DNA of 64,000 bases, taken from positions 124,001-188,000 of the forward strand of contig ONFF01000005.1 of NCBI GenBank assembly GCA_900317055.1, given 5' to 3'. The translations under genes and the position numbers were made by a program. This document shows, piece by piece, positions 39,196 to 58,115 of the stretch (positions are counted from its first letter, which is position 1; every line of letters starts with the position of its first letter). The DNA is from an uncultured Bacteroidales bacterium (GTDB lineage Bacteria; Bacteroidota; Bacteroidia; Bacteroidales; F082). The notes beneath the pieces are model-generated. The model saw only the letters and a list, made by a program, of their open reading frames with translations, searched no databases and was not told the origin of the DNA.

Positions 39196-39223
39196 ATTTG
39201 AATTGTTTTAGGGGTTTGCCGAC

Positions 39224-39255
39224 ATAATATAGACATTTTGGGCGGGAAATTCAAA
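39224..39255 (-). promoter_or_regulatory. Island promoter family, upstream of 216-aa gene
   Basis: TTTG (CAAA at 39252-39255), spacer AATTTCCCGCCCAAAATGTC, then TATATTAT, a two-base departure from TATATTTG. 29 bases before the ATG. Confidence 0.6.
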
Positions 39256-39291
39256 GATCAGAGGAAAAAAAACCATGAAGCATTTTTCTAT

Positions 39292-40842: not shown

Positions 40843-40854
40843 GATCTTAGTCCA

Positions 40855-42171: not shown

Positions 42172-42207
42172 ATTATTTTCTGTTACAATTGTACAAAAAA
42201 CATCTGA

Positions 42208-42699
42208 CTATAAAGCCACTATCATAGCATGAATTGCTGCCCAAGGTTTATGCTCTTCCACTTCTACTTCCTTGCCATCTTTATTTATTGTAGTTTTACA
42301 AAAAGAAACTAACTTGTCTTGTAAACTTTTACAAGCATTTTTCAAATACGATTTCTCGTTAACCTTATATTCACCTTGATTAGAGTTTTCCCCCGTCTTA
42401 GTTTCTTTTATAAACAAATCGTTTTGTTTATTTAACACCGTTTTTAATAGTTCAACTATCTCTTTCCAATTCTCGTCTTTTTTCAGTTTTTCTTTTGTTA
42501 TGTTTGAGAAACGTCCTTGCCCAACTCCAGCCACATTTATCCCTCCCAAGAATTGATCAAACAAGGTTTTATAAGTGATTTTCGTGTCGGTAATTATTGT
42601 ATCATCAATCTTACCTTCCTCTGCCGAAATCCACCTTTGGATTAAACTAGACTGTTTTTCAAAATTATCTTCACAACCAGACTTAATAACAATTTTCAT
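42208..42699 (-). CDS. N-terminal part of McrB-like protein, cut by an in-frame TAG
   Basis: 163 residues in the same frame as the McrB motor, separated from it by one TAG and 12 sense codons that read SDVFCTIVTENN. It ends in HKPWAAIHAMIVAL. McrB proteins carry a variable N-terminal DNA-recognition region, and this would be it. Either the gene has a nonsense change, or it is two polypeptides, or the stop is read through. AT-rich like the motor part. Confidence 0.6.
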   Translation of the reverse strand: MKIVIKSGCEDNFEKQSSLIQRWISAEEGKIDDTIITDTKITYKTLFDQFLGGINVAGVGQGRFSNITKEKLKKDENWKEIVELLKTVLNKQNDLFIKETKTGENSNQGEYKVNEKSYLKNACKSLQDKLVSFCKTTINKDGKEVEVEEHKPWAAIHAMIVAL

Positions 42700-42717
42700 A
42701 ATTGAAATAGCGATTCC

Positions 42718-42737
42718 CTACACATCGCGAGGTTTTG
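42718..42737 (-). repeat. CCTCGCGATG leader motif, copy 2
   Basis: Minus-strand AAAACCTCGCGATGTGTAGG, about 23 bases before the ATG at 42699. No TAnnTTTG box is seen close by, so the motif may stand in a leader rather than a promoter. Confidence 0.6.
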
Positions 42738-42775
42738 ACTATTTATATTTCTGTTTTATTTCTTTCTTTCCAAAC

Positions 42776-43003
42776 TCATTTCCTCCTCACTCCCCCACTA
42801 TACTCCCGGATATAGATCCCATAGTCGGTGTAGACCTCGATGTCGCGGCCGTTGGGGGCCAGGAGGAGGTCGAGGATGTGGTGGCCGTTGAACTCGGTGA
42901 CGCGACTCCAGCTGTTGCTACCCATAGTGGCTCTTTGCAACTGCCGGTCGTCGTTGGGGTTGATGCGGTAGATGAAACCGCCTATCTTTACTGCTTGCGC
43001 CAT
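42776..43003 (-). CDS. Hypothetical small beta-rich protein (75 aa)
   Basis: 75 residues from ATG 43003 (MAQAVKIGGFIYRINPNDDR). A start at 43108 would read through the promoter at 43026-43057. The sequence GRDIEVYTDYGIYIREYSGG looks like small beta strands. No family known. Confidence 0.5.
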   Translation of the reverse strand: MAQAVKIGGFIYRINPNDDRQLQRATMGSNSWSRVTEFNGHHILDLLLAPNGRDIEVYTDYGIYIREYSGGVRRK

Positions 43004-43025
43004 GGTTCCATTGTGTTTTGCACGG

Positions 43026-43057
43026 CAAAGATAAGGGTATTTATTTATTTTTCCAAA
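43026..43057 (-). promoter_or_regulatory. Promoter of the 75-aa gene
   Basis: TTTG (CAAA at 43054-43057), 20 bases, then TATCTTTG (43026-43033). Boxes and spacing match the consensus, but the spacer is unlike that of the island promoter family. Confidence 0.7.
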
Positions 43058-43143
43058 AAAAAGAAATGCTTGGTTTCCTTCGACCTCTTCCTTGTGTTTT
43101 TCCTTCACCCAATCAGTATAATCATAGTATCACACTACTCTAA

Positions 43144-43236
43144 AAGCCTCATCGCGGGCGCAGACCCGCGATCTCATAAAGCGGCGTGTACCCCTAAAGC
43201 GCAGGAGATCGCGGATGTTCCTCCGCGATGAGGCTT
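43144..43236. repeat. Nested palindromic element, 93 bp
   Basis: Outer arms AAGCCTCATCGCGG (43144-43157) and CCGCGATGAGGCTT (43223-43236) are perfect 14-bp inverted repeats. Inside, CGCGATCTC and GAGATCGCG form a second 9-bp pair, and each half can also fold on itself (GCGGG/CCCGC, ATCGCGGA/TCCGCGAT). It lies between two minus-strand genes and is far more GC-rich than its surroundings. It resembles a REP/BIME-type or non-autonomous mobile element. Confidence 0.8.
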
Positions 43237-43268
43237 AAGGCGTGAGTGTAGTACATGGGTGATTGATG

Positions 43269-43303
43269 CTAAAACTCCTTGTTCGTCACAAAATAGCACC
43301 AAG
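43269..43303 (-). pseudogene. Tail remnant of a leucine-rich repeat gene
   Basis: 35 bases match the last codons of the damaged gene at 44796 (33 of 35 identical by eye), encoding a WCYF..KEF ending and stop. Nothing else of the gene is left. Confidence 0.65.
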
Positions 43304-43316
43304 CCCGACCAACTTT

Positions 43317-44627
43317 CTACATATCCTCTATGGACAGGCCTTGAAGCGAGAATTGGTATCGTCCGAATTCAGACGGCAAAACCTTGACTTTTTCACCAAG
43401 TTCAACAAGGCTGATCTTTCGAGGATTGCGCTTGATTTCGGCCACAACGCCAGTGTGGTTGAACTCATTCAAAGCTATCATGTCAATCTCGTTGCCCCCT
43501 TTGCGATCCCACCAATTGCCTGCTATCGTGCATTGTCCCGACTCCATCGCCTTGGCTTGGAAATACTGCTCTAAAGTCCTACCAGAGAACTGATCATAAC
43601 CCTGCCCCATATTTTGGCGAAGTGCGGTCATCTGCTGACGTTCGATCAGCGACTGATAGGGCCAGATGAATCTGAACCAGAATCTCAAGAATTGGTCAGA
43701 TATTTCATAGGCTGTAGTTTTGCTGTTCGGCTTGGACAACAGAGGCTTCAGTCGCGTTACAATACGATAGTTTTTCTCCAGGTTTTGAAGATATACGCCC
43801 ATGTCCTTCTGCATGGCTCCGTCAATTTCACTACGTTTTGTCAAACCACAAGCAATCAGTTGAAGTACAGAAAAATAAGTATTACTTTCATCTCCGAACT
43901 CTTGATTCATCAAGTCACGTCCTTCCGAAAGGAAATACGAATCGGGTCGGCATATATAGTTGAGCATTTTTTCCTTGGTATAGCATTGTGCATCCATCAG
44001 AAGCTCTACATATTTAGCCACACCTCCAGTAATCATGTATAGGCAAAGCAGGTCTTCGTTCTTATAGTTGGGGCAATGATCCCGAAAGATTTGTTTCAAG
44101 ACGTCAATCCTGAACGGTAGTAGTGTATATTTCGAGGTGGGCCTTCCGTATAACGGTTCGTTTTCGTCCTCGAAGATGCGTTTCATCAGCGACTGTATGC
44201 TGCCTGACGCAACCAAATGGAGGTGTGAATCGCGATGATAACGATCCCAGAGGTCTTGAATTTCGCTAAAAATAGCGGGATTTACCTTGTACAAGTTTTG
44301 AAACTCGTCGAAAAACACTGTGAAGTGCCTGTCGACAGAGGTTTTCATGATGATTTCGAACAGGTCGCGAAAGTGTGCGATTTGGCCAAAAACTTGAATA
44401 CCCAACTGTTCTTCGATGGCCTTCTGAAACTTATGGCACAAAACGGCTTCACCATCTTTTGAGACAAACAGGTAGGCAACCTCCTTGCCTTCAAGGGCTT
44501 TGGTAATCAACGACGTCTTTCCTACGCGTCGTCGGCCCGTCAGAACAGTAAAGACCGCTGCACGTTCGGCTTGTCGTTCGTTCAAGACAAGCATTTCCAT
44601 TTCTGTTTCCCTGTCGTAAAACTTCAT
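43317..44627 (-). CDS. Archaeal-type ATPase with DUF234 nuclease-like C-terminus
   Basis: 436 residues. Walker A is LTGRRRVGKTSLITKAL, Walker B is FTVFFDEFQNLYK and the sensor region is LVASGSIQSLMKRIF. The C-terminal DUF234 part has the nuclease-like strand NEIDMIALNEFNHTGVVAEI with E/D and E-x-K residues. These STAND-like ATPases are frequent in mobile and defence regions; some act as toxins or regulators, but the function of this one is unknown. Less AT-rich than the McrB gene. Confidence 0.82.
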   Translation of the reverse strand: MKFYDRETEMEMLVLNERQAERAAVFTVLTGRRRVGKTSLITKALEGKEVAYLFVSKDGEAVLCHKFQKAIEEQLGIQVFGQIAHFRDLFEIIMKTSVDRHFTVFFDEFQNLYKVNPAIFSEIQDLWDRYHRDSHLHLVASGSIQSLMKRIFEDENEPLYGRPTSKYTLLPFRIDVLKQIFRDHCPNYKNEDLLCLYMITGGVAKYVELLMDAQCYTKEKMLNYICRPDSYFLSEGRDLMNQEFGDESNTYFSVLQLIACGLTKRSEIDGAMQKDMGVYLQNLEKNYRIVTRLKPLLSKPNSKTTAYEISDQFLRFWFRFIWPYQSLIERQQMTALRQNMGQGYDQFSGRTLEQYFQAKAMESGQCTIAGNWWDRKGGNEIDMIALNEFNHTGVVAEIKRNPRKISLVELGEKVKVLPSEFGRYQFSLQGLSIEDM

Positions 44628-44673
44628 AATATTAATCGCAATTTATATTAATTGTCATTTATATTTTTCGGTG

Positions 44674-44681
44674 CAAAGATA
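44674..44681 (-). promoter_or_regulatory. -7 box of the DUF234 ATPase gene
   Basis: CAAAGATA reads TATCTTTG on the minus strand, 46 bases before the ATG. Only a weak upstream box. Confidence 0.5.
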
Positions 44682-44795
44682 AGAATAGTTTTAATTGATG
44701 AAAATTTTTGTGGTGTTTTTATAGTCATTTGATTTTTATCAATCTTCAAAAAGGCATTTTGCCCTTAAATAAATGGAAATAGCAGTCCGCCCTCC

Positions 44796-45078
44796 CTAAA
44801 ACTCCTTGATCGTCTCAAAATAGCACCAAGGCTCGGTCTTCTCGTAGAGGGCGCGGCTGCCTTTGGGCACATATTCCGATTTCCGTCACCGAGTTGGGGA
44901 TAACGACGCTCGTCAGTCCCGTGCAATCCTTGAATGCGAAGTCCCCGATTGTCTTCACCGAGTCGGGGATGACGATGCTTGTCAATTCCTTGCAATCTTG
45001 GAACGCACGAGCCTCAACACAAGTGGTTCTTTTAGAAATAATTCCCTCTCCGTCCTTGATTTCATATTTTGCAATAGT
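44796..45078 (-). pseudogene. Broken BspA-type leucine-rich repeat gene
   Basis: One minus-strand frame reads AFQDCKELTSIVIPDSVKTI, GDFAFKDCTGLTSVVIPNSV and TEIG, two clear repeats. After TEIG the frame is lost, and the ending YVPKGSRALYEKTEPWCYF continues in another frame to TAG at 44796, so a shift or deletion joined them. The 5' side has no usable start (TGA directly before the frame). It is a decayed relative of the gene at 34987-35751. Confidence 0.8.
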
Positions 45079-45094
45079 TCATCGCGATTCGCCT

Positions 45095-45114
45095 TCACAT
45101 CGCGAGGTTTTTAT
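45095..45114 (-). repeat. CCTCGCGATG leader motif, copy 3
   Basis: Minus-strand AAAACCTCGCGATGTGAAGG, followed by AATCGCGATG, so CGCGAT..ATCGCG can pair. It precedes the broken leucine-rich repeat gene. Confidence 0.6.
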
Positions 45115-45320
45115 GGTTTAACAAATGATAATATTCGAGCGGCCCACACGCATCGCGCACGGGCAAAGTTGTTGTCAAAAAATCAGTTAGAAAATTGATT
45201 GTCAGAGATTTATAAGGGGGGGGGCATGGCTCCGCAACGGCAAACCTGCGCGGGCAAGTCGGCGGTCGGACGGTCCTGCCGAGAATCTCGGCGAATCATC
45301 GTGGTGAGGTTATTACGCCA

Positions 45321-45352
45321 CAAAGATAGAAACATTTTCGGGGAAATTCAAA
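45321..45352 (-). promoter_or_regulatory. Island promoter family, upstream of the broken LRR gene
   Basis: TTTG (45349-45352), spacer AATTTCCCCGAAAATGTTTC, then TATCTTTG (45321-45328). The -33 box overlaps the stop of the preceding gene. An intact promoter thus faces a pseudogene, with about 240 bases of non-coding sequence between, including a run of nine G near 45215. Confidence 0.8.
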
Positions 45353-46094
45353 AAAGATCAGACGGCAATTCGATTTTCATTTTCCTGCTGCTGTGCGATT
45401 TGGCTGCGGCAAGCAGGGCTTCCTGGCTGGTGTATTGCTCGTAAAGCGTGCATTGCGTGACGATGCCTTGCGTCGAGCATCGCTCACCGTCAACCAACAC
45501 CAATGCCCAGCCTTTGTTAAGGTCGGCAAACTCCTCTCCCACCAACGCGACACCTCCTGCCGTCTCCACAAGCTCACTTGTCTTCACCTTCCTGAATTTG
45601 AACTTCACTCTCGGCAAGCTATCCTCCCCATGTTGCTCGGCCGTGTAAAGCAGCAACTCCATACCTTGGCGGATGTCTTTTTTATCCAGGTTGGCGATGA
45701 GCGCCGCAACGCCATCCACCTCGCCAAGCTGCTGCCTTACCGTAAGCAGCTTGCCTTCGCTCACCGGAATATCGGGCATCAGAAATGAAGCATAACTATC
45801 CATAAAGCTTTTTTCGATAAAAACCGCTGGCAGCCTATTGGCAAGCGCCACAAAGCCGTTGTAGGCCGACTGGTGCTCGGTGAACATCGTATCACAAAGC
45901 GACAATCCATGCCATAGTGCGATGGAATGCCTCATCCGCTGTCGTTGTACGAATTGTTTTAGGGTGCACCGACGCGGCCTTGAACTGTTGTGCGCAGTCC
46001 GTACTACTGTTTTCCCCTGTTTCTCATAGATGGTTACTCCCGATTGTGGCATTCTCCCAATCAGCGATAAACCTTTGACTTGTCTTTTTCCCAT
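45348..46094 (-). CDS. Hypothetical protein (248 aa), DUF6266-like
   Basis: 248 residues, basic N-terminus (MGKRQVKGLSLIGRMPQSG) with RPRRCTLKQFVQRQRMRHSI and a beta-rich C-terminal half. The layout recalls DUF6266-type proteins of unknown function in Bacteroidota, by recall only. It has an island promoter 210 bases upstream, and a long perfect palindrome lies in the leader. Confidence 0.55.
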   Translation of the reverse strand: MGKRQVKGLSLIGRMPQSGVTIYEKQGKTVVRTAHNSSRPRRCTLKQFVQRQRMRHSIALWHGLSLCDTMFTEHQSAYNGFVALANRLPAVFIEKSFMDSYASFLMPDIPVSEGKLLTVRQQLGEVDGVAALIANLDKKDIRQGMELLLYTAEQHGEDSLPRVKFKFRKVKTSELVETAGGVALVGEEFADLNKGWALVLVDGERCSTQGIVTQCTLYEQYTSQEALLAAAKSHSSRKMKIELPSDLF

Positions 46095-46305: not shown

Positions 46306-46337
46306 CAAATATAGAAACTTTTGTCAGGAAATTCAAA
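46306..46337 (-). promoter_or_regulatory. Island promoter family, upstream of 248-aa gene
   Basis: TTTG (46334-46337), spacer AATTTCCTGACAAAAGTTTC, then TATATTTG (46306-46313). Best match of the family. Confidence 0.85.
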
Positions 46338-48394: not shown

Positions 48395-48426
48395 CAAATA
48401 TAGGAACTTTTGTCGGAAAATTCAAA
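48395..48426 (-). promoter_or_regulatory. Island promoter family, upstream of the PDDEXK_4 gene
   Basis: TTTG (48423-48426), spacer AATTTTCCGACAAAAGTTCC, then TATATTTG (48395-48402). The leader is about 55 bases. Confidence 0.85.
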
Positions 48427-48433
48427 AAGCAGG

Positions 48434-48470
48434 CAAAAAAAGTGGAGCAACTTCGCTAGTCGCTCCACTT
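48434..48470 (-). terminator. Terminator of the 48489-49786 unit
   Basis: On the minus strand AAGTGGAGC pairs with GCTCCACTT around a 13-base loop, followed by five T. The next promoter's -33 box begins only a few bases later. Confidence 0.85.
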
Positions 48471-48488
48471 TAGATAATTACGCCATCT

Positions 48489-48953
48489 TCATTCCTGGCT
48501 TTTCTTCACCTCCACCTTGATGCTGCCATCCTTGAGGCCGCGGATGAAGCGGACTTGCGCCTGCTCCTTTTCCTCGGTCATCAGTTCATAGGGATGGCCG
48601 TCGGTTTCGGTTTCAGGGAAGTATTTGCCCTCGGCATCGTTCTTCAGATAGACTTCGCAGCCGGGTTCCACGGCCTTGTAGAAGATGCGGAGCGAGGGAT
48701 AGGCTTCCTTCAGCAAGTTCGTCACCTCGTAGCAAGGCGTCCAAGCCGTCTCGAAGGTCACGCAAAGGGTGTCGCCTTGGTGCTCAAGGCCTATCCACTC
48801 GCCTCGGCACTCCACCTCTTCAGGGTTCTTGCCCAGCGTTTTCACCAGACAGCCCAAAAGATTCTCTTGCTGTTCTTTCATCGTTTGACACAGTGCATCG
48901 AGTTCTTCCTTTTCGCCCTCGATGACGTAGTTCGTAGTGCAAATGTTTGCCAT
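48489..48953 (-). CDS. YubB/DUF1281-like ferredoxin-fold protein
   Basis: 154 residues. The opening MANICTTNYVIEGEKEELDA resembles the YubB/Api92-type N-terminus (MAN-x-C-x-N-x-V). The middle LEHQGDTLCVTFETAWTPC and YPSLRIFYKAVEPGCEVYL fits that ferredoxin-like fold, found on plasmids and phages. Function unknown. It starts 2 bases after the stop of the paralogue gene at 48956, so the two are cotranscribed. Confidence 0.65.
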   Translation of the reverse strand: MANICTTNYVIEGEKEELDALCQTMKEQQENLLGCLVKTLGKNPEEVECRGEWIGLEHQGDTLCVTFETAWTPCYEVTNLLKEAYPSLRIFYKAVEPGCEVYLKNDAEGKYFPETETDGHPYELMTEEKEQAQVRFIRGLKDGSIKVEVKKSQE

Positions 48954-48955
48954 TA

Positions 48956-49786
48956 TTATTCTCCCTTAATTGACTTGTATGACTCTGTTACTTTTGCTTT
49001 CAGGTTGTCAAGCGTATCCTTGTATTTCGGCATCAGTTTCACATATTTGGCGATGGCGTTCAAAGTGAGCATACTGAATGGGATATGGTAGTTGTCATAT
49101 ACAGGATATTTTGCATTGAAGAATGAATCTTTTTCTTCTGCGTATGGGTAGAAATAGCATTGGTATGGTGACGGTGCCCAAAGAGCCTCTTTCAGCAGTA
49201 ACTGGCAATCTTGAAATTCGATGATGATGAGCGCCTTTCCCCGTTCATGTACATAGGCCTTCGCATCCTGCAATCCCTGTGCATCCAGATAGGGACGAAG
49301 GACATTCTTGACATAGTCCTCTGGAGGTGCGACATAAAAGCCGCTCGAATTGCGAAGCCAAGGCTTGAAAACCGGATCACCCATACCTAAGCCTGCCTGT
49401 GTAGCATTCACCATCAACTTCTTGACGGCAGCCATCCAAGGCTTCAGCGCCGCACTTATGGCTGAATCCTCATTAAAAGATGATGATCTGCGGATACAAG
49501 ACTCCAACTTTTTTGGTATCATCGCATCATCCCACAGTTTGAAATCGATGTCATCGGCACTTATACCATCCATGACGGCAAGTTTGTATCCTTTGACGTA
49601 GAAGGCGTATTCTTCCTCAACTTCTTTATAAAGTTCGTAGTCATCAAGCCCTTCGTCAAAGGCTTTGAAAAGGTCTTGCCGAATATATTCAAGTGAGGTG
49701 TGGTGCTCAAGGTAGCGGGCGAGTTTTGCCTCCCATGTCATGTTTCTTTTCCGCCCATTCTTCCAATATGATTTATACTCCTTCAT
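48956..49786 (-). CDS. Uncharacterised protein, short member of the MoxR-linked paralogue pair
   Basis: 276 residues. It matches the C-terminal two thirds of the 532-residue protein at 52280-53878 in order: YWK N-terminus, Y-A-x-x-G-x-K/R-L-x-M/T-D-G-I, a K-PW-x-AVKK segment (LKPWMAAVKKLM), then VLRPYLDAQGLQ and a YFYP segment. No known family. Both genes flank the MoxR-VWA pair. In a two-gene unit with the YubB-like gene. Confidence 0.65.
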   Translation of the reverse strand: MKEYKSYWKNGRKRNMTWEAKLARYLEHHTSLEYIRQDLFKAFDEGLDDYELYKEVEEEYAFYVKGYKLAVMDGISADDIDFKLWDDAMIPKKLESCIRRSSSFNEDSAISAALKPWMAAVKKLMVNATQAGLGMGDPVFKPWLRNSSGFYVAPPEDYVKNVLRPYLDAQGLQDAKAYVHERGKALIIIEFQDCQLLLKEALWAPSPYQCYFYPYAEEKDSFFNAKYPVYDNYHIPFSMLTLNAIAKYVKLMPKYKDTLDNLKAKVTESYKSIKGE

Positions 49787-49807
49787 TTATTCCCTATACT
49801 TAGTGGT

Positions 49808-49839
49808 TTAATATAGTAACATCCTGTCAGAAATTCAAA
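49808..49839 (-). promoter_or_regulatory. Island promoter family, degenerate copy
   Basis: TTTG (49836-49839), spacer AATTTCTGACAGGATGTTAC, then TATATTAA in place of TATATTTG. 22 bases before the ATG at 49786. Confidence 0.6.
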
Positions 49840-49854
49840 AAACGGTCTATCTTT

Positions 49855-51213
49855 TTACACTTGCATCAGGCAGACGCGACCCGTCTTGCGCAAGGCTTTG
49901 CCATTTCGTTGGTATGATGCTTCGTTGTCGATAATCCAAAGGAGTTTGGCTCGGCAATGAGGCGGTATCTCCGGCACAGGGGCATAGCCGTCGGTAATGA
50001 CAATCATGCCGTCGTAATCAGGATGCTTTGCCAAGTAATCGACAGGCGCCTGAAAGTTGGTGCCGCCACGCCCTTGAACCTTAAACTCCTGCTTCCGCTT
50101 CTTGGCTTCGTCCAGTTTCATGACGTCACCTTGAACGCAAGCATCGAACATGAGGACATCCACCTGCTGGATGCCATACTTGAAGAAGGTGGTGATGACG
50201 TTGAAATAGCGACCCAGTTCCTCTGAACCTACCGATCCGCTGGTGTCGACTGCCACAAGGATACGAGTGATGAAGTCATAACGGCTGCCCATCTGCTCGA
50301 ACCCGAAGCGACGGCTGGGGCGCATCCTTGTGAGGCGACGTTTCTCAGACAAGATGCTGGCACGGAACCCCCGCAGGGCACTGCGGAAGTCAATCTTTCC
50401 CTCTGCGGCTTTCTTGATGAGTTCGATCATGCCACCGGGCATGCTGCCCCAACTGGTCGTGCTTTGGATGAGGTCGGTAATCAAACGCGACTGGAACTGG
50501 TCTTCCTCCCAAAGGGCTGTGTAGTCGCCCTCGGCCTGTGTTTTGCTATTGTTCTTGCCATAATCAGTTTCGCTCATTCTAGCCTCACCCGAAGCGTTTC
50601 CTTGTCCCGTGTCGGAGCCCTTCATTTTTCCTGTTCCTAACCCAGAACTTTGTCCCTTCTCTACACCTTGGCCATTTTCTTTGCTTCTTTCTGACGAGGT
50701 ATCTTGGCCACTTTGTTCCTGTTGGGAATCACTCCCTTTGCCACCTCCACCGGCGTCGCCACTTCCTCCCGAGTCACCCTCGCTGGGAGCATTTCCATCA
50801 ACATGAATAGTCATATCATTCAGGCGCGTCGCATACCATTCGTAGTGCTGTCCCATAGGCAAGCCAAAATCTTCGGGCTTTGTCAATTCAATCCATGCCA
50901 ACTTGTAGGCAGGCGAGATGACCATGTCGCTGGCCGCATGCTGAACGAGGGGCTTGCAACCCAAAGGCTGGCGTGCGTAGGGATGTTGCAGCAGGATACG
51001 GATCATCTCCACCTTCAGCAACTCATTCAACTGGTTGTCCTGCAAGGCATCGATAACGGTCGGGTTGTACTCGATGCGTCCCTGCCCGGTGCGCAACGGG
51101 CACTGCATATTGGCGTTCATCGTCAGGCGATGGCTGCAATATACGGCGAAAAACACCGGCTCCGTCAGGAACCATTGCTCCGCAACTTGTTGTATGCGCT
51201 CTTGTGAAGTCAT
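49855..51213 (-). CDS. DUF2201/VWA-domain partner of a MoxR ATPase
   Basis: 452 residues. Residues 1-130 match the DUF2201 N-terminal (putative metallopeptidase-like) domain with KVEMIRILLQHPYARQPLG. Residues 140-235 are a Gly/Ser/Gln-rich linker. The VWA-like domain begins near 305 with ILVAVDTSGSVGSEELGRYF, the MIDAS DxSxS, and continues GRGGTNFQAPVDYL and DGMIVITDGYAP. VWA proteins of this sort are the substrate adaptors of MoxR AAA+ rings. It overlaps the MoxR stop by 4 bases. Confidence 0.85.
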   Translation of the reverse strand: MTSQERIQQVAEQWFLTEPVFFAVYCSHRLTMNANMQCPLRTGQGRIEYNPTVIDALQDNQLNELLKVEMIRILLQHPYARQPLGCKPLVQHAASDMVISPAYKLAWIELTKPEDFGLPMGQHYEWYATRLNDMTIHVDGNAPSEGDSGGSGDAGGGGKGSDSQQEQSGQDTSSERSKENGQGVEKGQSSGLGTGKMKGSDTGQGNASGEARMSETDYGKNNSKTQAEGDYTALWEEDQFQSRLITDLIQSTTSWGSMPGGMIELIKKAAEGKIDFRSALRGFRASILSEKRRLTRMRPSRRFGFEQMGSRYDFITRILVAVDTSGSVGSEELGRYFNVITTFFKYGIQQVDVLMFDACVQGDVMKLDEAKKRKQEFKVQGRGGTNFQAPVDYLAKHPDYDGMIVITDGYAPVPEIPPHCRAKLLWIIDNEASYQRNGKALRKTGRVCLMQV

Positions 51214-52274
51214 AAGGTTTGGATGAATTCGACAATTTTCTTGTAAGTGTCGGGCATTTCCTTATTGATAAGAAGTAGCATCTTCTTATAGCCCGTGCCA
51301 TCGATGAGCGATACAAAATGGGCGTAGGCTTCGCGGTTGTTCTTGAGCAGGTAGTCGTGGTACGCCTTTAGGTTTTTACGCGCCATTTCGCGGTCGAGGG
51401 TGTCGGCCTTGTCGGTCTCGAAAAAGCGCGCCAAGGCATCGTTGAGCAACGAGAGTTGATGCAACTCGTATTTGTCGAGCGATTTCTTGGCTTTCTTGAA
51501 GTCGGTGAGCAGGTCGATGGGCGAAAGGTCGTCCTTGCGGAACGAAAGGAACAACTGTGCTGCCGCCTGAACGCCGATGATGCCGGCCACCACCTTCTGA
51601 TGCACGGGCAAGGGGCTGGGGATATTCTCCATCAGTCGGGCCACCTTCTCCCAGGCGCGGCGGTCGGGATCTTTGTCAAGGCCTTGGTCTTCCTTGGTGT
51701 CGGCGCTGCGGTCGAGCAACTCGGGATTGGCACCGATGAAATTGAGGATACGCTCGTCGAGACCTGTACGCGTCGCCCACAGCAACCAATCCTCCACCGT
51801 GGGACGGAAGGTATAGATATTGAAGCGCGACACCAATGCCGGGTCGAGGTCGGTGAGTTGATACTCCTCGCCGTCGTTACCCGCCGCGATGATACGGCTG
51901 CCTTCGGGCAATTCGCGACCAGCCAGCTTGCGGTTCAGCACGAGGTCCATCACCGTCTGCAAGATTTCGGGACGGGCGCGGTTGATCTCGTCCAAGAAAA
52001 GCACGATGGGTTGGCCGTCGACAGGGAACCAATAAGGTGGCATGAAAACGGTCTTGCCCGTTTTCTCGTCCTTATTGGGCAGTCCCAGTAAGTCGCCAGG
52101 GTCGCTCATCTGTCCGAGGAACAAGGTCTTCACCGGTATGCCTTTTTCCTTAAAATACCTAGTCAGAATTTGCGACTTGCCGATGCCGTGACGGCCGGTC
52201 AGCATGATGTTTTGCCATGTGGGCGTGACCTCCAAAAGGGTCATCAGTTCGGTTTCGTTAATTGCTATGGCCAT
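51210..52274 (-). CDS. MoxR-type AAA+ ATPase
   Basis: 354 residues. Walker A is LTGRHGIGKSQILTRYF, Walker B is VLFLDEINRARPEILQTVMD, then sensor 1 GSRIIAAGNDGEEYQL and the arginine segment DPALVSRFNIYTF. MoxR ATPases act as chaperones that load or remodel client complexes with a VWA partner, here the next gene, whose start overlaps this stop. The partner pair plus the flanking paralogues argue for one machine. Confidence 0.88.
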   Translation of the reverse strand: MAIAINETELMTLLEVTPTWQNIMLTGRHGIGKSQILTRYFKEKGIPVKTLFLGQMSDPGDLLGLPNKDEKTGKTVFMPPYWFPVDGQPIVLFLDEINRARPEILQTVMDLVLNRKLAGRELPEGSRIIAAGNDGEEYQLTDLDPALVSRFNIYTFRPTVEDWLLWATRTGLDERILNFIGANPELLDRSADTKEDQGLDKDPDRRAWEKVARLMENIPSPLPVHQKVVAGIIGVQAAAQLFLSFRKDDLSPIDLLTDFKKAKKSLDKYELHQLSLLNDALARFFETDKADTLDREMARKNLKAYHDYLLKNNREAYAHFVSLIDGTGYKKMLLLINKEMPDTYKKIVEFIQTL

Positions 52275-52279
52275 ATTGT

Positions 52280-53878
52280 TTATAGTTTTTGTTCGATGAA
52301 ATCAATCGCAAGGATGGGTTCGGGATCAGAATGACCATATTGTCTAATGAACTCTTGAACCGTCCTGGAAGGTAACCGTTTGCCTTCAACAGATGTCGCA
52401 ACAGGGTCTCTGGCATATACATTATGGCAATCGGCATCAACCCATCCCATTACTTCTTCTTGACTAACGATGCCACCAAATCTTTTTTCTTCTACGAAAC
52501 TAAATGCGTTATCGCTGACTACCCTAATTGTTGGTATCAAGGGTATCCGGTATCCACCATTTATTAATCGGCCGGCCTCCCAGCGGAGATACTTCATCAT
52601 TTTTCCGATAGGCTTGCCCGCATACTGCTGGGCCAATGCCTCCAATTGCTCTACGGCAGCATGATACTTTTCGTTCTGTTGCATCTGTTGGTCGTAGATG
52701 TGCAGGACTTTCAGAATCGTCTCATCCATCTTTTGGTTGACGGCGGACATCATCTTCAGATAATCAGCGAAGGCACTTAAGGGAGTGTTCTCCGTCAAAA
52801 CCAAAAAGCATTCATCATAACAGGAGTTGGGATAAAAGAAGAATTTATTAAAATGAGCTAACAAACGGGAGTTAGCACCTTGGTACTTCAATATGACATC
52901 GGTTTTTCCTAAAACCACCAACTCCACTTCCTGCAATCCGACACTTTCCAAATAAGGGCGTAAGCACTCTTCCACAAATTTATCAGAGCAGGAGTGCCTG
53001 ACGCTAAACTTCTCCAATGTCTCAGTTTGATCCCTCAACGACCGCTCCTGGGCGGCATCGAAAAATTTCTTGACAGCCGACTTCCAAGGGCGGCTCACCT
53101 GCTCAATGATTTTGTCAACGTTATAGTCCTTGGTGATGTATTCCGGGATTTTCTTCTGCAACTTCTTCTCGTTCCAGGGTTCAAACTCAATGCCGTCAAC
53201 CAGAGCGGCCTCCATGGTGCGGAGTCTCAGTTTCTTGGCATAGTAGTTGAATTCTTCCTGCCGCAGTTCCCATTCGGCAGCCATTTCCATCAACAGCGTG
53301 GCAATGTTCAGGGTGCTGAAACCTGTCTCCTCCAATCTCAAATCGGAAATGGACAGTTGCTTGCAAGGCACGAGTTCATACAGGGCAAAAGGCTGCTGTA
53401 GATAAGTATAGCGGTAGATAGCCATCGTTACCTCTCGGTAATTGATGGTGCAGGTTTCCAAATCGGTAAACTTTTCATATAAATCACGACGATTTTTGGC
53501 AACGTCAAGCATGTCTCCGTATGCTATTTCAAGTGGTTGCTGACCAACGATATTCTTCTTGCTTATTGTCATCGTTAAAGAACTGACATCGGCACCCTCT
53601 GCTTGCATGGCCTCAATAAGTCCTTGTTCTGAAAAAGAGAAGTGCATATTAGAACCCCATCGTGCTATGGGATTCTGAACAGTCCGATGCTCATCCAGAA
53701 GGCTGCGCACCTCATCTCTTTTCATATGGCCATAGACAATCTCGCTTCGAATTGCCTCCAACTGCATGTGCTTTTGGGCAAAGCGTTTGGCTTTGGCCGC
53801 CCACGACTTTTTGCTTTTGGCGGTTTTTTCTTTCCAATATTCGGTGAAACTCCTCTTAGAATTGTTATTGCGTTGCAA
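52280..53878 (-). CDS. Uncharacterised protein, long member of the MoxR-linked paralogue pair
   Basis: 532 residues, soluble and alpha/beta. The N-terminus YWKEKTAKSKKSWAAKAKRF matches the start of the 276-residue paralogue. The middle carries WKSAVKKFFDAAQ, ECLRPYLESVGLQEVELVVL and KFFFYPNSCYDECFLV, all collinear with it. The first 200 residues hold extra sequence the short protein lacks. First gene of the operon that continues into MoxR (5-base gap) and VWA. No known family. Confidence 0.65.
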   Translation of the reverse strand: MQRNNNSKRSFTEYWKEKTAKSKKSWAAKAKRFAQKHMQLEAIRSEIVYGHMKRDEVRSLLDEHRTVQNPIARWGSNMHFSFSEQGLIEAMQAEGADVSSLTMTISKKNIVGQQPLEIAYGDMLDVAKNRRDLYEKFTDLETCTINYREVTMAIYRYTYLQQPFALYELVPCKQLSISDLRLEETGFSTLNIATLLMEMAAEWELRQEEFNYYAKKLRLRTMEAALVDGIEFEPWNEKKLQKKIPEYITKDYNVDKIIEQVSRPWKSAVKKFFDAAQERSLRDQTETLEKFSVRHSCSDKFVEECLRPYLESVGLQEVELVVLGKTDVILKYQGANSRLLAHFNKFFFYPNSCYDECFLVLTENTPLSAFADYLKMMSAVNQKMDETILKVLHIYDQQMQQNEKYHAAVEQLEALAQQYAGKPIGKMMKYLRWEAGRLINGGYRIPLIPTIRVVSDNAFSFVEEKRFGGIVSQEEVMGWVDADCHNVYARDPVATSVEGKRLPSRTVQEFIRQYGHSDPEPILAIDFIEQKL

Positions 53879-53924
53879 AGATGTATGCGGTTATTAAAAG
53901 TTAGTATGATTCAATTTGACGCTA

Positions 53925-53955
53925 CAAATATAGTACTATTGTCTAAAAATTCAAA
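53925..53955 (-). promoter_or_regulatory. Island promoter family, upstream of the MoxR operon
   Basis: TTTG (53952-53955), spacer AATTTTTAGACAATAGTAC, then TATATTTG (53925-53932). Spacing is 19 bases. 47 bases before the ATG. Confidence 0.8.
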
Positions 53956-53964
53956 AATTGCAGC

Positions 53965-53995
53965 AAAAAAGTGGAGCGGATTCCCACCGCTCCAC
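53965..53995 (-). terminator. Terminator of the AAA+ gene
   Basis: On the minus strand GTGGAGCGG pairs with CCGCTCCAC (9 bp) around a 7-base loop, followed by six T. It shares GTGGAGC with the terminator at 48434 and is 10 bases from the next promoter. Confidence 0.88.
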
Positions 53996-54005
53996 CTGTG
54001 ACAGT

Positions 54006-55673
54006 TTAAAACCCAATCCTCTTTCGCGTAACGCCATTGTTCAGCTGTTCGCAGCGGCAGTAGCTTTCAAGCACAGGAAGCATCTCGTCAGCGGTGCCAT
54101 AGAGGATGCTGTTGATGGCGTGCTTTCGGGCCACGTTCTCGATTTGGCCACCGCTGAAGTCGAAGTGCTCGGCCAGGATGGCAGCATCGCTGGCGTTCAA
54201 CTCAGGGATCATCTGTTGCCAGATCTTGCCGCGCACCGTGGCATCAGGCTTGTCGAACCTGATCTTGTAGAGGAATCGACGCTCAAAGGCACTGTCGAGG
54301 TTCTCGGTGAGGTTGGTGGTGGCAATCATGATGCCGTCCAAGGTCTCCATCTCCTGCAGGATGATGTTCTGGATGGTGTTCTCCATCTTGTCCACCGCGT
54401 CTTCGGCACCAGCCTTGCGGATGCCAATGATGGCGTCGGCCTCGTTGAAGAGCAGTATTGGGGCTTTCTCGGCACGCTGCACGAGGCTGCGGTAACGGTC
54501 GAACAAGGCCTTGATGTTCTTCTCCGAGTCACCCACCCACTTGCTCTTGATGCTCGGCACATCGACAGTCATGATGGAACGTCCCGTAAGGCGGGCCAGC
54601 TGATAGACGGTCTCGGTCTTTCCCGTGCCCGGACCGCCATGAAACAGACAGGTGAAGCCCTGTCGGAAACCGCGCTGCTGCATGCGCTCACGGATCTTGG
54701 TATATTGCTCCGGCTCAAAGAAACGGTTGAGTTCCTCCACCTGATGCTGAACGGTCTCAGTGTAGTACATGGTCTTAGGCGTGAGTTGGTCAGGCTCAAT
54801 CACATCGGCGAGGTGTTCCTCCGTGGTAGTGTTGATTTTCAGCTCGGCAAGCAAATCGCGCTTGGCCTCCTCGGTCAGTTTGAATTGCGTGTTGTTGACG
54901 ATACCATCCTCGCAGCGGAACTCGATAAGTTTGGCCATTTGAAGCGTGTGACTGTCGCTGCGCAAAGCGGCCTTGGCGTTGTTGAAGTCGGCACTGTTGT
55001 TGAAGACGTCCTCCATTTGTCCGAAACGGATGTCATCGTCGCACTTACAGATCAGATAGTAGCAAAACAACACGAGGAGCAATTCATCGGTCTCCTGAAG
55101 ATGCAGCCGCTTCACCTTTTGGCCGAAGGCCACCTGCGGGTTGTCGTCGAACAGCCTGTTCATCTCCTCATACAGCTCTTGTGGACTGATGGCATTGTCA
55201 TCAAGGTCGTTGAACCATTGTTCCAGCATCTCGAACATGCCGGCACAGTCAAGGCCTTTGTGGACGGGCAGCTGATACACTTCGTTGTGCTTCAGGCAGC
55301 GAATCACAGGTGCAGGCACATCGAAGTCATCCTCGTCCTTCACGTCACGGAAACGCAGCAGGCGGCGATGCACCAATGTGTCGATGTCGTTGGCGAAAGC
55401 CAACACGGCGATGTTGCCAAGGTCGAGGTGACGGGCCAAGTCGCGGTAATCCACACGATAAGGACCTTCGTCCATGCAGATGGCAAAAATGACGGCTTGC
55501 CGCTCGCTGATGCCGTATTGTTCAGCGAGGAACTTGATTTCCGCCTCGGAGGCTTTCAAGAAGTCTACGCTCATCTTGGAGTCCCTGGAGCGTTCAGCAA
55601 CGGTCTCGATGGCCTGAAGGAGAGTTAGGTTTTGATTTTTACGGGTCTTGGTGGTGGCGTTTTTCTTTTCCAT
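54006..55673 (-). CDS. AAA+ ATPase with unknown N-terminal domain
   Basis: 555 residues. Residues 1-300 are a helical, acidic N-terminal region without a name. The AAA module has Walker A LFHGGPGTGKTETVY, Walker B ILLFNEADAIIG (Asn in place of the usual Asp, which some bacterial relatives share), SRH-type NLDSAFERRFLYKIRF and a small C-terminal helical lid. It looks like an FtsH/ATAD-type unfoldase core without a protease. Own promoter and terminator; it lies at the head of the MoxR module. A partner role is inferred from position only. Confidence 0.78.
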   Translation of the reverse strand: MEKKNATTKTRKNQNLTLLQAIETVAERSRDSKMSVDFLKASEAEIKFLAEQYGISERQAVIFAICMDEGPYRVDYRDLARHLDLGNIAVLAFANDIDTLVHRRLLRFRDVKDEDDFDVPAPVIRCLKHNEVYQLPVHKGLDCAGMFEMLEQWFNDLDDNAISPQELYEEMNRLFDDNPQVAFGQKVKRLHLQETDELLLVLFCYYLICKCDDDIRFGQMEDVFNNSADFNNAKAALRSDSHTLQMAKLIEFRCEDGIVNNTQFKLTEEAKRDLLAELKINTTTEEHLADVIEPDQLTPKTMYYTETVQHQVEELNRFFEPEQYTKIRERMQQRGFRQGFTCLFHGGPGTGKTETVYQLARLTGRSIMTVDVPSIKSKWVGDSEKNIKALFDRYRSLVQRAEKAPILLFNEADAIIGIRKAGAEDAVDKMENTIQNIILQEMETLDGIMIATTNLTENLDSAFERRFLYKIRFDKPDATVRGKIWQQMIPELNASDAAILAEHFDFSGGQIENVARKHAINSILYGTADEMLPVLESYCRCEQLNNGVTRKRIGF

Positions 55674-55701: not shown

Positions 55702-55732
55702 TACTTATAGTAACTTTTTGCCGAAAATTAAA
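55702..55732 (-). promoter_or_regulatory. Island promoter family, degenerate copy
   Basis: TTTA (55729-55732), AATTTTCGG..AAAAGTTAC-like sequence follows with shifts, then TATAAGTA. It is the last and weakest copy, 29 bases before the AAA+ gene, marking the right edge of the island. Confidence 0.45.
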
Positions 55733-55765
55733 AAAAAGTAGCAACTTTTTTTTCAGGAGTGCTCC
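55733..55765 (-). terminator. Hairpin and T-run after the ComEA-like gene
   Basis: On the minus strand AGGAG-CA-CTCCT is followed by a second small hairpin and a run of eight T. It separates the ComEA-like gene from the island. Confidence 0.6.
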
Positions 55766-56692
55766 TCAATACTTCACATACTGCTCCAAAAGCGGGTTCA
55801 CCTCCCCTTCTTCCTTGAGCAATGCCTCCAGTTGCGCCCAGTTTTTGATCATGCCACGCTTCTCGCGTTGGTTGACTATGCGCTTCACCTGCTCGTAGCT
55901 GAGGTAAGGATGATGCACTAAGGTCTTGAAATCCGCACGGTTGACATCGACTTTCCGAATCTCAATGGCACCTAAATTAATATAAGGTTGTATGGCTGCA
56001 AAACGCGCATCGTCCATGCCTTTTACATCGCGGAGTTGCTCCTTGTCGACGAAACCGCCCAACTTCTCGCGGAACTCGATGATGCGCACTGCCGTGTAAG
56101 GGCCTATCTGCGGCAACTCCACCAAGGTGGTCGAGTCTACCGTATTCAAGTCGACGATGGGAATGGCTTTCTTTTCGGAAGGAGTGGATGCTGCGGTCGT
56201 TGAGCCTGTCGAAACGCCGCTTTGAGATGTAGCTTTAGTATTGGTGTTTTTCCCTCTTGAAACCTCAGGCAACACAATGAAAGGTTCCAGCTGCGCAAAC
56301 TCTTCCTCGCTGATGGTGTAAAGCTTGCCCAAGTCGTTTTTCGAATAAAACTTGCCGCCTTTGGCCTTGTAGTTCATGATGTTGCGCACCTGACGGTCAG
56401 TGAGACCCATTTGCAGCCATTCCTCTTCCGTGAGGGTATTGGGATTGAAGGGAAAAGGATGCAGCTCCGCCTCCTCTTGAGGCTTCTCAGCTTGTTGCTG
56501 TTGTTGCTGCTCGATGGCCGCCTGGCGCAATGCCAACAAAGAATCCAGGTTGTGCAAGGAGGCATCACTCAGCGACTTGCGCGACGGACGAAACAGACAG
56601 GCCAAAATCAATACCAGTATCACTGCCAGTATCGTAATGATGGCAACGCGCTCGCCTTTGCTGAAGGAAAACCATTTGCGCAAGGAATCCAT
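55766..56692 (-). CDS. ComEA-like helix-hairpin-helix protein
   Basis: 308 residues. One N-terminal transmembrane helix (about 17-34) and a Q-rich linker precede repeated HhH units: WLQMGLTDRQVRNIMNYKAK, VDLNTVDSTTLVELPQIGPY, VDVNRADFKTLVHHPYLSY. Proteins of this type bind double-stranded DNA in the periplasm during uptake or serve in envelope DNA contact. The linker GVSTGST near residue 161 is encoded by a copy of the TTCGACAGGCTCA repeat. The next gene upstream is an NSS transporter, separated by a double repeat. Confidence 0.8.
   Translation of the reverse strand: MDSLRKWFSFSKGERVAIITILAVILVLILACLFRPSRKSLSDASLHNLDSLLALRQAAIEQQQQQQAEKPQEEAELHPFPFNPNTLTEEEWLQMGLTDRQVRNIMNYKAKGGKFYSKNDLGKLYTISEEEFAQLEPFIVLPEVSRGKNTNTKATSQSGVSTGSTTAASTPSEKKAIPIVDLNTVDSTTLVELPQIGPYTAVRIIEFREKLGGFVDKEQLRDVKGMDDARFAAIQPYINLGAIEIRKVDVNRADFKTLVHHPYLSYEQVKRIVNQREKRGMIKNWAQLEALLKEEGEVNPLLEQYVKY
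56199..56218. repeat. TTCGACAGGCTCA-family repeat inside the ComEA-like gene
   Basis: GTTGAGCCTGTCGAAACGCC on the plus strand lies in frame within a Ser/Thr-rich linker between HhH units, coding GVSTGST. Confidence 0.8.
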
Positions 56693-56762: not shown

Positions 56763-58115
56763 TTAGTTAATCAATCCTCTGATGAACACAATCGTGATGG
56801 CAATGGGAGCCAGATATCGAATAATAAAGAAGATAATCTTTTTCAACGATGCCTTGATGGTACCCTCGTTGGTCACCTCCTCGAAGAACTTGGCCTTGCC
56901 CAATCGCCAACCCACGAAGATGACAATCAACACGCCACCGAGGGGCAAGAGGATATTGGATGAGACAAAATCCATGAGGTCGAAGACCGTTCTGCCGCCA
57001 ATGACAAAGGGCGTGTTCTCCATCAGGCTCAACGAAGCAAAACTACCGATGAATAGCGTGGCTACACAAGCCCATACCGTCGACCACTTGCGGTTAATAT
57101 GAAGTTCCTCGGAGAGGTAGGCCACCACAACCTCAAGTAGCGAAATCGTGGAAGTCAGCGCGGCAATGGCCAACAGCACGAAGAAGATGATGCAGAAGAT
57201 ATAGCCTCCTGTCATCTGGTTGAAAATCATCGGTATCGTGTTGAACACCAGCCCCATGCCTGCTGTCGGGCGGATGCCAAACGAGAAAGCCGCAGGGAAG
57301 ATGACGAGACCCGCCAACACCGCAATCAAGGTGTCGGCAAGCACCACGGAAAAGGCGGTGGAAGTCAAGTTGTCTTTTTTCTTGATGTATGAACCATAAG
57401 TAATGAGTGCTCCCATGCCGAGACTCAACGAGAAGAAGCCTTGGCCCAAAGCACTGATAAGGACATTTCCATCGATTTTAGAGAAATCCGGATGGAATAG
57501 GAACGACAATCCTTCTTTGGCCCCTGGTAGCGTAACAGAGCGTATACCCAAGACAATCAGGATGACCAAAAGCAGCGGCATAAGGATTTTTGCGTATCTC
57601 TCAATGCCATTTTGCACTCCTTTGAAGACCACAAAGCCGGTCAGGAATATGAAGATGGCCTGCCACATCACATTGCGCCAGCCCATATTGTGGAAGTCGG
57701 CAAAGTCTTGCTCCATGGCTGCCAAATCCTTGCCTTGGAACGAGTTGGACACTGCCTTGATGATGTATTCCAAAGTCCAGCCCGACACGGTGGAATAGAA
57801 CGCAAAAATGATGAAACCACACAACACACCCATATAGCCAACAATCGACCACGCCGACTTAGGCGCCAGCTTCTTGAAGGCTCCGACGGCATTGCTTTGT
57901 GAGCGGCGACCGATGACCAACTCCGACAGCATCACGGGGATGCCGAGGAAGATGACCACGGCGAGATAGACCAACAAGAAGGCCGCACCTCCGTTGTTGC
58001 CCAACTCGCAAGGGAAACGGTAGATATTGCCCAATCCGATGGCCGAGCCAGCAGCAGCGGCAATAATGCCTATTTTCGAGCCAAAGCCATCGCGTTTCTT
58101 TTTTTCTTCAGCCAT
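56763..58115 (-). CDS. Sodium-dependent NSS-family transporter
   Basis: 450 residues, 11-12 transmembrane helices. The start GSKIGIIAAAAGSAIGLGNI with the unwound TM1 and YRFPCELGNNGGAAF, then IPVMLSELVIGRRSQ, is the NSS hallmark. It imports amino acids or related compounds with Na+; the substrate cannot be told. It begins 3 bases after the upp stop, an unusual pairing, as uracil carriers belong to other families. Confidence 0.9.
   Translation of the reverse strand: MAEEKKKRDGFGSKIGIIAAAAGSAIGLGNIYRFPCELGNNGGAAFLLVYLAVVIFLGIPVMLSELVIGRRSQSNAVGAFKKLAPKSAWSIVGYMGVLCGFIIFAFYSTVSGWTLEYIIKAVSNSFQGKDLAAMEQDFADFHNMGWRNVMWQAIFIFLTGFVVFKGVQNGIERYAKILMPLLLVILIVLGIRSVTLPGAKEGLSFLFHPDFSKIDGNVLISALGQGFFSLSLGMGALITYGSYIKKKDNLTSTAFSVVLADTLIAVLAGLVIFPAAFSFGIRPTAGMGLVFNTIPMIFNQMTGGYIFCIIFFVLLAIAALTSTISLLEVVVAYLSEELHINRKWSTVWACVATLFIGSFASLSLMENTPFVIGGRTVFDLMDFVSSNILLPLGGVLIVIFVGWRLGKAKFFEEVTNEGTIKASLKKIIFFIIRYLAPIAITIVFIRGLIN

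What the first reader, a model, noticed from the sequence alone, without database searches (positions are those of the whole stretch)
48489..55673. MoxR ATPase / DUF2201-VWA / AAA+ module flanked by two paralogous proteins of unknown family
The order on the minus strand is AAA+ (54006), long paralogue (52280), MoxR (51210), VWA (49855), short paralogue (48956), YubB-like (48489). The long and short proteins share a collinear set of segments (YWK start, PW-x-AVKK, LRPYL-x-x-x-GLQ, YFYP). MoxR and VWA overlap by 4 bases. MoxR-VWA pairs are known chaperone systems (RavA-ViaA), and MoxR/VWA ternary conflict systems have been proposed from comparative genomics. The paralogue pair and the protease-free AAA+ with NEAD Walker B do not match any set I know. 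Position among nuclease genes suggests a defence or stress role.
Basis: partly seen in the sequence, partly recalled or inferred. Interest (0 to 1): 0.8.

Follow-up and report, generated by a model that had tools for sequence, protein, structure and literature searches.

The report
Motor-protein module with interchangeable partner proteins
A Bacteroidales bacterium, probably from the rumen, carries a compact gene set in which a conserved ATP-driven motor pair (MoxR plus a VWA protein) is linked to fast-changing partner proteins of an undescribed family, and some related bacteria pair the same kind of motor with a different undescribed family, which suggests one motor that works on exchangeable clients or sensors.

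Summary
LONG and SHORT are real paralogues without a family match above cut-off. The conserved cassette, however, is LONG-MoxR-VWA-YubB (5 of 5 complete loci); SHORT is an optional extra copy (2 of 5), and the AAA+ gene heads a hypervariable region and is not part of the module. The cassette was found only in a few Bacteroidales genomes. MoxR is nearly invariant; LONG evolves faster and is a segmental mosaic (two segments, two alleles each, all four combinations in four genomes). The AAA gene also recombines and another neighbour has a similar dN/dS, so these signs are not specific to LONG.

The wider result: related Bacteroidales DUF2201-VWA/MoxR loci lack LONG. Instead 13 of 18 such genomes, against 0 of 30 of the same order without the VWA, encode one or more proteins sharing a second undescribed C-terminal domain (called TCD here), beside the pair or on other contigs, some fused to WGR domains. 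This VWA clade has lost the metallopeptidase HExxH motif.

I read it as a MoxR-VWA ternary system: an ATP-driven remodeller with dedicated, exchangeable partners, perhaps in a conflict role (inferred). New variant of a known kind.

The parts
52280..53878 (-). LONG: 532-aa third-component protein of an undescribed family (N-terminal YWK helical motif, three alpha/beta stretches in the model); segmental mosaic
51210..52274 (-). MoxR-type AAA_5 ATPase, 354 aa, intact Walker A and B; 98-99% identical in the two closest relatives with a whole gene
49855..51213 (-). DUF2201 protein: N-terminal zincin-like domain with VEMIR in place of HExxH, low-complexity linker, C-terminal VWA with intact MIDAS
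48956..49786 (-). SHORT: 276-aa paralogue of LONG (N-terminal motif plus the LONG 207-395 region); optional, present in 2 of 5 complete loci
48489..48953 (-). YubB/DUF1281-like small protein, 154 aa (Pfam match below cut-off); follows the VWA or paralogues in 5 of 5 loci
53925..53955 (-). Bacteroidetes-type promoter-like element in front of LONG (consensus match only)
49810..49842 (-). similar promoter-like element in the VWA/SHORT gap (consensus match only)
48439..48471 (-). terminator-like hairpin with T-run after the YubB gene (consensus match only)
53969..53997 (-). terminator-like hairpin between the AAA+ gene and LONG (consensus match only)
54006..55673 (-). AAA+ ATPase with weak similarity to IetA; head of the hypervariable region, NOT part of the cassette

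Best explanation
The cassette LONG-MoxR-VWA-(SHORT)-YubB is a MoxR-VWA ternary system. MoxR (a presumed hexamer) and the DUF2201 VWA protein, whose metallopeptidase part looks dead, form an ATP-driven remodeller. The VWA part docks the dedicated third component, LONG or its paralogues, and MoxR pulls or twists it between states. LONG carries conserved segments plus exchangeable segments that fall largely in predicted beta-sheets, which I read as the sensing or specificity surface. SHORT and MED are extra, shorter partners handled by the same motor. In related Bacteroidales the same motor clade goes with a second, sequence-unrelated family marked by a C-terminal domain (TCD), in arrays next to the pair and on other contigs. 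The likely use is detection of, or response to, phages or other invaders. SHOWN here: the cassette, the paralogy, the loss of HExxH, the two partner families, the co-occurrence, the mosaicism. INFERRED: physical contact, remodelling, sensing, defence.
For: LONG-MoxR-VWA-YubB is contiguous in 5 of 5 complete loci, apart from SHORT/MED insertions. LONG is found in 1 of 295 order genomes (the own one), and its profile in 1 of 395 phylum genomes. Close VWA (over 70% identity) occurs in 3 of 99 genus genomes, all with LONG; the fourth VWA genome, G328, has a 42% VWA, no LONG, and a TCD gene overlapping the VWA end. TCD is in 13 of 18 genomes with the VWA and 0 of 30 without (p 4e-8); leaving out the seven genomes that seeded the profile, 6 of 11 versus 0 of 30, p 1e-4. 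TCD genes sit next to the pair, up to four overlapping paralogues. Of 25 loci compared, none has both LONG family and TCD. LONG dN/dS is 0.23-0.36 between window and relatives, against 0.03-0.08 for MoxR. All four segment-allele combinations are seen. HExxH is lost in 5 of 5 LONG-linked and 9 of 9 TCD-adjacent VWAs.
Against: No interaction, complex or phenotype was tested. No effector domain was recognised. Fold searches of both models gave no match at E<=0.001. The AAA gene next door is also mosaic (79 of 126 quartets with two or more strong topologies) and the neighbouring gene 45348-46094 has dN/dS 0.26-0.31, as high as LONG, so neither sign singles out LONG. HExxH is also lost in related VWAs of genomes without TCD (L062, L064, L065), so the loss belongs to the clade, not to the partners. 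LONG family and TCD are not related by sequence; their equivalence rests on position and exclusivity. Two genomes with a close pair have no TCD (G293, G111), and G036 has TCD but no MoxR seen beside its VWA. Nearly all named relatives are metagenome bins, where chimaeras are possible. The empty TCD search of two LONG genomes had no positive control in it.
Confidence: 0.57

Rival explanations
1. A dedicated assembly or cofactor-insertion chaperone of the NorQD/RavA-ViaA kind: LONG is a metabolic or structural protein that needs MoxR-VWA for maturation; no conflict role.
For: Studied MoxR-VWA pairs act on enzyme complexes (NorQD: PMC13036017, abstract and outline seen; RavA-ViaA: abstracts in the listing). 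LONG lies 5 bases from MoxR in 5 of 5 loci; the motor is strongly conserved.
Against: LONG has no enzyme or cofactor-binding domain above cut-off, is rare and patchy (4 of 99 genus genomes), sits in a hypervariable region with nuclease genes and its family comes in 1-3 diverged copies.
Confidence: 0.24
2. Domesticated or cargo version of the phage MoxR/metallopeptidase-vWA virion-assembly chaperone, kept as a selfish or superinfection-interfering gene set.
For: 518 viral-contig stretches encode relatives of the VWA; a jumbo-phage paper proposes a virion-assembly role (PMC7824862, passages seen). PHROG 1297 and 1314 match MoxR and VWA.
Against: LONG was not found in viral contigs or phage records; TCD was found in only one (L129) of the 80 viral loci held, and the viral collection at large could not be scanned for it. 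The LONG-bearing rows form a starred clade apart from the four viral rows in the trees, though the viral group L130/L131 also lacks HExxH. None of eight proteins of the cassette and its surroundings scanned against PHROGs looked structural.
Confidence: 0.1
3. The paralogues are unrelated hitch-hikers in a recombination hotspot and MoxR-VWA works on something else.
For: The region is hypervariable and recombines; SHORT has its own promoter-like element; L014 shows a MED-like fragment without MoxR or YubB on its visible side.
Against: LONG lies 5 bases from MoxR in 5 of 5 loci although LONG falls to 61% and MoxR to 81% identity with the window. Searches of 99 genus, 173 family and 395 phylum genomes found the LONG family only in four genomes, each with MoxR next to LONG. 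A second family shows a comparable link to the same VWA clade.
Confidence: 0.09

Closest known systems
MoxR-vWA-centric ternary systems (VMAP, iSTAND, FtsH, beta-propeller; eLife 2020, PMC7159879, passages seen)
   Same: A MoxR and a vWA gene plus a distinctive third conserved component, partner copies in adjacent genes, patchy distribution.
   Different: Third component has no Pfam match, of these types or any other; VWA is the DUF2201 (pseudo-zincin) type without C-terminal effector domain; the doubling involves whole proteins or the TCD domain; host not known to be multicellular.
Jumbo-phage MoxR plus metallopeptidase-vWA pair (PMC7824862, passages seen)
   Same: MoxR and an N-terminal metallopeptidase-like plus vWA architecture; PHROG 1297/1314 match the window's pair.
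   Different: HExxH lost; third component present; bacterial hypervariable region.
NorQ-NorD and RavA-ViaA (PMC13036017 abstract and outline; RavA-ViaA from the listing)
   Same: MoxR AAA+ with a VWA cochaperone; plausible remodelling mechanics.
   Different: VWA architecture, partners and genome context differ; no metal enzyme client found.
IetAS (PADLOC IetA and NCBIfam IteA models)
   Same: The neighbouring AAA+ gene has weak similarity to the ATPase (NCBIfam 105 bits, cut-off 510; PADLOC 108 bits).
   Different: No protease gene adjacent; the AAA+ gene is not part of the cassette.

Membership tests
MoxR-vWA ternary conflict system (as a general kind) | Adjacent MoxR AAA+ and vWA genes | tested here: met
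   4-base overlap, Pfam AAA_5 and DUF2201, intact Walker and MIDAS motifs
MoxR-vWA ternary conflict system (as a general kind) | Third conserved protein exclusive to the system | tested here: met
   LONG with MoxR-VWA in 5 of 5 complete loci; the four genus genomes with LONG all have MoxR beside it; L014 fragment undecided
MoxR-vWA ternary conflict system (VMAP, iSTAND, FtsH or beta-propeller subtype) | Third component of one of the four published types | tested here: not met
   No Pfam or NCBIfam match for LONG or SHORT above cut-off; whether these libraries hold all four types was not checked, and remote homology is not excluded
MoxR-vWA ternary conflict system (as a general kind) | Variable effector domains on the vWA component or partners | tested here: not met
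   VWA ends with its MIDAS domain; no effector family found
MoxR-vWA ternary conflict system (as a general kind) | Function against invaders | not testable with these tools
   needs phage challenge
IetAS | AAA+ IetA above family cut-off plus serine protease IetS (definition recalled) | tested here: not met
   105 bits against cut-off 510; no protease among the adjacent proteins scanned
Active DUF2201 metallopeptidase | HExxH zinc motif | tested here: not met
   VEMIR in its place
LONG family as a diverged member of the TCD family | Significant profile match | tested here: not met
   hhalign probability 0.1-0.2%, hmmsearch --max best E 0.22

The most novel reading that the evidence does not exclude
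In Bacteroidales a pseudo-peptidase MoxR-VWA motor acts as a hub for a set of tagged client or sensor proteins. A conserved C-terminal tag domain (TCD), with one to ten matches per genome and fused to variable N-terminal parts including WGR domains, or in one lineage the unrelated LONG/SHORT family, addresses each protein to the motor. This would be an ATP-gated, swappable immune or stress receptor repertoire.
Probability: 0.3. Interest if true: 0.88.

Novelty: new variant of a known kind. Interest (0 to 1): 0.65.

Why it matters
MoxR-VWA chaperones are widespread but few clients are known. The finding names two undescribed protein families whose presence tracks one motor clade, and so gives a handle on how a MoxR-VWA pair chooses clients and whether some pairs run a diversified receptor set. 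The loss of the peptidase motif across this clade suggests a switch from processing to pure remodelling, though it is not confined to loci with partners. No account of DUF2201-type pairs with such partners turned up in the paper searches made. The four papers that hold the word DUF2201 were seen as listings only, and most subscription papers are not held, so this is weak evidence of novelty.

Tried and rejected
AAA+ as a module member: rejected. Orthologues at 85-91% identity head LONG-less variable regions in six other genus genomes that I read (L098, L100-L104); the cassette in L012 has no AAA in the roughly 7 kb held on each side; terminator- and promoter-like elements separate the two genes.

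LONG as a YbjN or type III chaperone-like fold: my impression from the model's topology, recalled, not supported by Foldseek.

LONG homologous to TCD: not supported. The high B-versus-C score is an artefact of overlapping cuts and was discarded.

Mosaicism and dN/dS as proof of diversifying selection on LONG: weakened by the AAA control and by gene 45348-46094.

PDDEXK_4 gene as a partner nuclease: rejected as a constant member; its position and presence vary.

LONG in viral contigs, phage records and plasmids: none found. A viral scan with the MoxR protein found no close relative. A phylum search with the VWA profile found only the own genome at E<=1e-30 in 395.

Full report
WHAT IS THERE. 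On the minus strand the window encodes an AAA+ protein (54006-55673), LONG (52280-53878), MoxR (51210-52274), a DUF2201/VWA protein (49855-51213), SHORT (48956-49786) and a YubB-like protein (48489-48953). Pfam gives AAA for the first, AAA_5 for MoxR, DUF2201_N plus DUF2201 for the VWA, sub-threshold DUF1281_C for YubB and nothing above cut-off for LONG or SHORT. NCBIfam, PADLOC and PHROGs add only weak hits for LONG and SHORT. LONG and SHORT are true paralogues (shuffle control). SHORT is LONG's N-terminal motif plus the region 207-395. A third, intermediate paralogue (MED, 390 aa) exists in a relative (L011 14932-16104).

THE CONSERVED UNIT. LONG occurs in 1 of 295 genomes of the order sample, the own one, and in 4 of 99 genomes of the genus; its profile occurs in 4 of 173 of the family and 1 of 395 of a phylum sample. 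A scan of the public genome collection gave 7 loci from metagenome bins titled Bacteroidales, Bacteroidaceae, Prevotellaceae or Bacteroidia, whose isolate names (RUG, RUI) I know from recall as rumen studies. The five loci with complete context (window, L009, L010, L011, L012) all read LONG-MoxR-VWA-(SHORT)(MED)-YubB, with 5 bases between LONG and MoxR. SHORT is in two of them and MED in one. L008 is cut off inside MoxR and L013 inside LONG. L014 is a MED-like fragment at a contig end whose visible side holds neither MoxR nor YubB. These three were not used for the count of five. Within the genus, YubB proteins at 70% identity or more occur in three genomes, all with the cassette; ten others have relatives at 43% or less. 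No YubB relative was found in the 20 LONG-less MoxR/VWA loci examined (tblastn, E 0.01). A Bacteroidetes-type promoter-like element precedes LONG, and terminator-like hairpins lie between AAA and LONG and after YubB. Similar promoter-like elements precede SHORT and AAA. These are consensus matches only.

THE AAA+ GENE. Its family occurs in 39 of 99 genus genomes at E<=1e-60, often in several copies. Orthologues head hypervariable regions in six genomes without LONG. Genes seen in these regions and in those of the LONG loci include PDDEXK_4, AAA_21, DUF2779, LRR_5 and sigma-70-like genes. The downstream stretch of the window holds a McrB-like ATPase, McrBC, DUF2779 and LRR genes. The NEAD Walker B is shared by 11 of 11 relatives checked.

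EVOLUTION OF THE CASSETTE. MoxR is 98-99% identical among window, L009 and L011, with dN/dS 0.03-0.05. LONG is 77-87% identical among window, L008, L009 and L011, with dN/dS 0.23-0.36. Other genes, same call, window, L009 and L011: 45348-46094 0.26-0.31, AAA 0.11-0.12, the gene 55766-56692 0.06-0.13, the gene 56763-58115 (a sodium symporter by recall, not scanned) 0.03-0.05. So LONG is fast but not the only fast gene. LONG is a patchwork: codons 330-390 come in two alleles (window and L009 against L008 and L011; 97% within, 74-75% between at nucleotide level), and codons 445-480 come in two alleles (window and L011 against L008 and L009; 98-99% within, 73-76% between). All four combinations are present, and informative sites back three different topologies in different stretches with up to 31:0:0 support. 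A block of about 2.3-2.5 kb covering the 3' end of MoxR, VWA and most of SHORT is nearly identical between window and L011 while LONG upstream is not; the VWA there has dS 0 against 0.55 for gene 56763-58115. Controls: gene 56763-58115 shows no significant heterogeneity along its length, MoxR a little, and AAA, the gene 55766-56692 and gene 45348-46094 do in at least some pairs; 79 of 126 AAA quartets show two or more strong topologies. Recombination is therefore a property of the region. Chimaeric metagenome assemblies are a possible contaminant of this result.

THE SAME MOTOR WITH OTHER PARTNERS. VWA relatives occur in 18 of 295 order genomes, of which only the own one has LONG; one further genus genome (G328) has a VWA without LONG. 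Reading 18 loci of the other 17 order genomes showed small divergent paralogues near the VWA or MoxR in 7 of 18: two in L053, L055, L056 (one of them broken into pieces) and L057, one in L061, four overlapping ones in L050, and one in L052, 2.5 kb away on the other strand. The genus locus L128 has one overlapping the VWA end, and the viral-collection contig L129, which may be cellular, has two. MoxR was not seen beside the VWA in L054 (G036) and L060 (G211, which has a second locus with MoxR). The paralogues share a C-terminal domain of roughly 80-110 aa, which looks alpha-beta-beta-beta-alpha by eye (TCD, alignment A7). No Pfam match above cut-off covers it in the members scanned, and no solved structure matches below E 0.16; NCBIfam and PADLOC were not tried for it. 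Searched in 48 genomes, A7 matched 13 of the 18 with the VWA (17 plus G328) and 0 of 30 without. Seven of the 13 seeded the profile; without them it is 6 of 11 against 0 of 30, and 5 of 10 if G181, a near-twin of a seed, is also left out. The five misses are G293, G111 and the three most distant VWAs (G255, G195, G167). Of the 52 matches, 31 lie on contigs other than that of the VWA (my count from the listing; several genomes are fragmented). In G194 and G092 the domain occurs in 13 proteins of 309-826 aa, twice in 7 of them at domain E<=0.05; the start of the 826-aa frame looks wrong. Of six such proteins scanned, four have a WGR domain above Pfam's cut-off. The two LONG genomes searched with A7 gave nothing, without a positive control. 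LONG family and TCD are not related by sequence. In MoxR and VWA trees the LONG-bearing rows form a starred clade.

DEAD PEPTIDASE. In 5 of 5 LONG-linked and 9 of 9 TCD-adjacent VWAs the HExxH position reads xExxR. The other Bacteroidales rows do too (L051, L054, L058-L060, L062-L065), including genomes without TCD. L066 and L067, the most distant, have HExxH. Of 31 viral rows checked (L130-L160 of the 80 held), 20 have HExxH and 11, mostly the closest ones, do not. MIDAS DxSxS shows in every row except L057, whose printed list was cut at three other matches.

STRUCTURE. LONG: mean pLDDT 69.7, pTM 0.56, good from about residue 220 to 490. SHORT: 72.7 and 0.66. Both have a helix, a small sheet and a long helix in the shared region. 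The exchangeable LONG segments (330-390, 445-480) fall largely in strands of the predicted middle and C-terminal sheets. Foldseek gave no match at E<=0.001 (LONG against pdb and viral, SHORT against pdb).

MECHANISM. For NorQD a motor is described in which the VWA protein inserts into the AAA+ ring and is remodelled to act on its target (PMC13036017, abstract seen). The ternary-system paper (PMC7159879, passages seen) proposes that a third component coordinates sensing with a MoxR-vWA threshold switch, and that shared adaptor domains recruit further proteins. The present system fits that logic with different parts. I give 0.57 to the dedicated-partner reading as a whole; the defence part alone I would put near 0.4. 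Membership in any of the four published subtypes is not claimed, because no third component of those types was recognised and no effector domain is present.

Noticed in passing
window 33381-46094: Defence-like neighbourhood: McrB-like AAA_5 ATPase and McrBC (39292-42171), DUF2779 (36864-38462), LRR_5 gene (34987-35751), sigma-70-like gene (33381-34775), ATPase_2 gene (43317-44627) matching PADLOC PDC-S27.
   Followed up: partly
window 38460-38491, 45321-45352, 46306-46337, 48395-48426, 49810-49842, 53925-53955, 55704-55736: Similar promoter-like elements (TTTGAATTT...TANNTTTG or near it) in front of successive genes of the variable region; 13 TTTG/TANNTTTG matches in the window against 2.8 expected. 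Could be the homology used for gene exchange, or just the usual promoter of the genus.
   Followed up: partly
L239-L248 (G194, G092): Small genomes (1.3-1.4 Mb, 68-74% complete) with several WGR proteins carrying one or two TCD-like domains.
   Followed up: partly
L050 12193-15072: Four overlapping paralogous TCD genes in a row upstream of MoxR-VWA.
   Followed up: partly
L130, L131, L143: Viral contigs (L131 and L143 about 364 kb) with a MoxR-DUF2201 pair whose HExxH is also lost, without TCD or LONG in the stretch held.
   Followed up: no
L062 5895-7064, L064 5650-6849: Serpin genes directly upstream of MoxR-VWA pairs that lack TCD.
   Followed up: no
window 48555-49091 and 53958-55628, plus strand: Long antisense ORFs opposite SHORT/YubB and the AAA+ gene; judged non-coding shadows without a test.
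   Followed up: no
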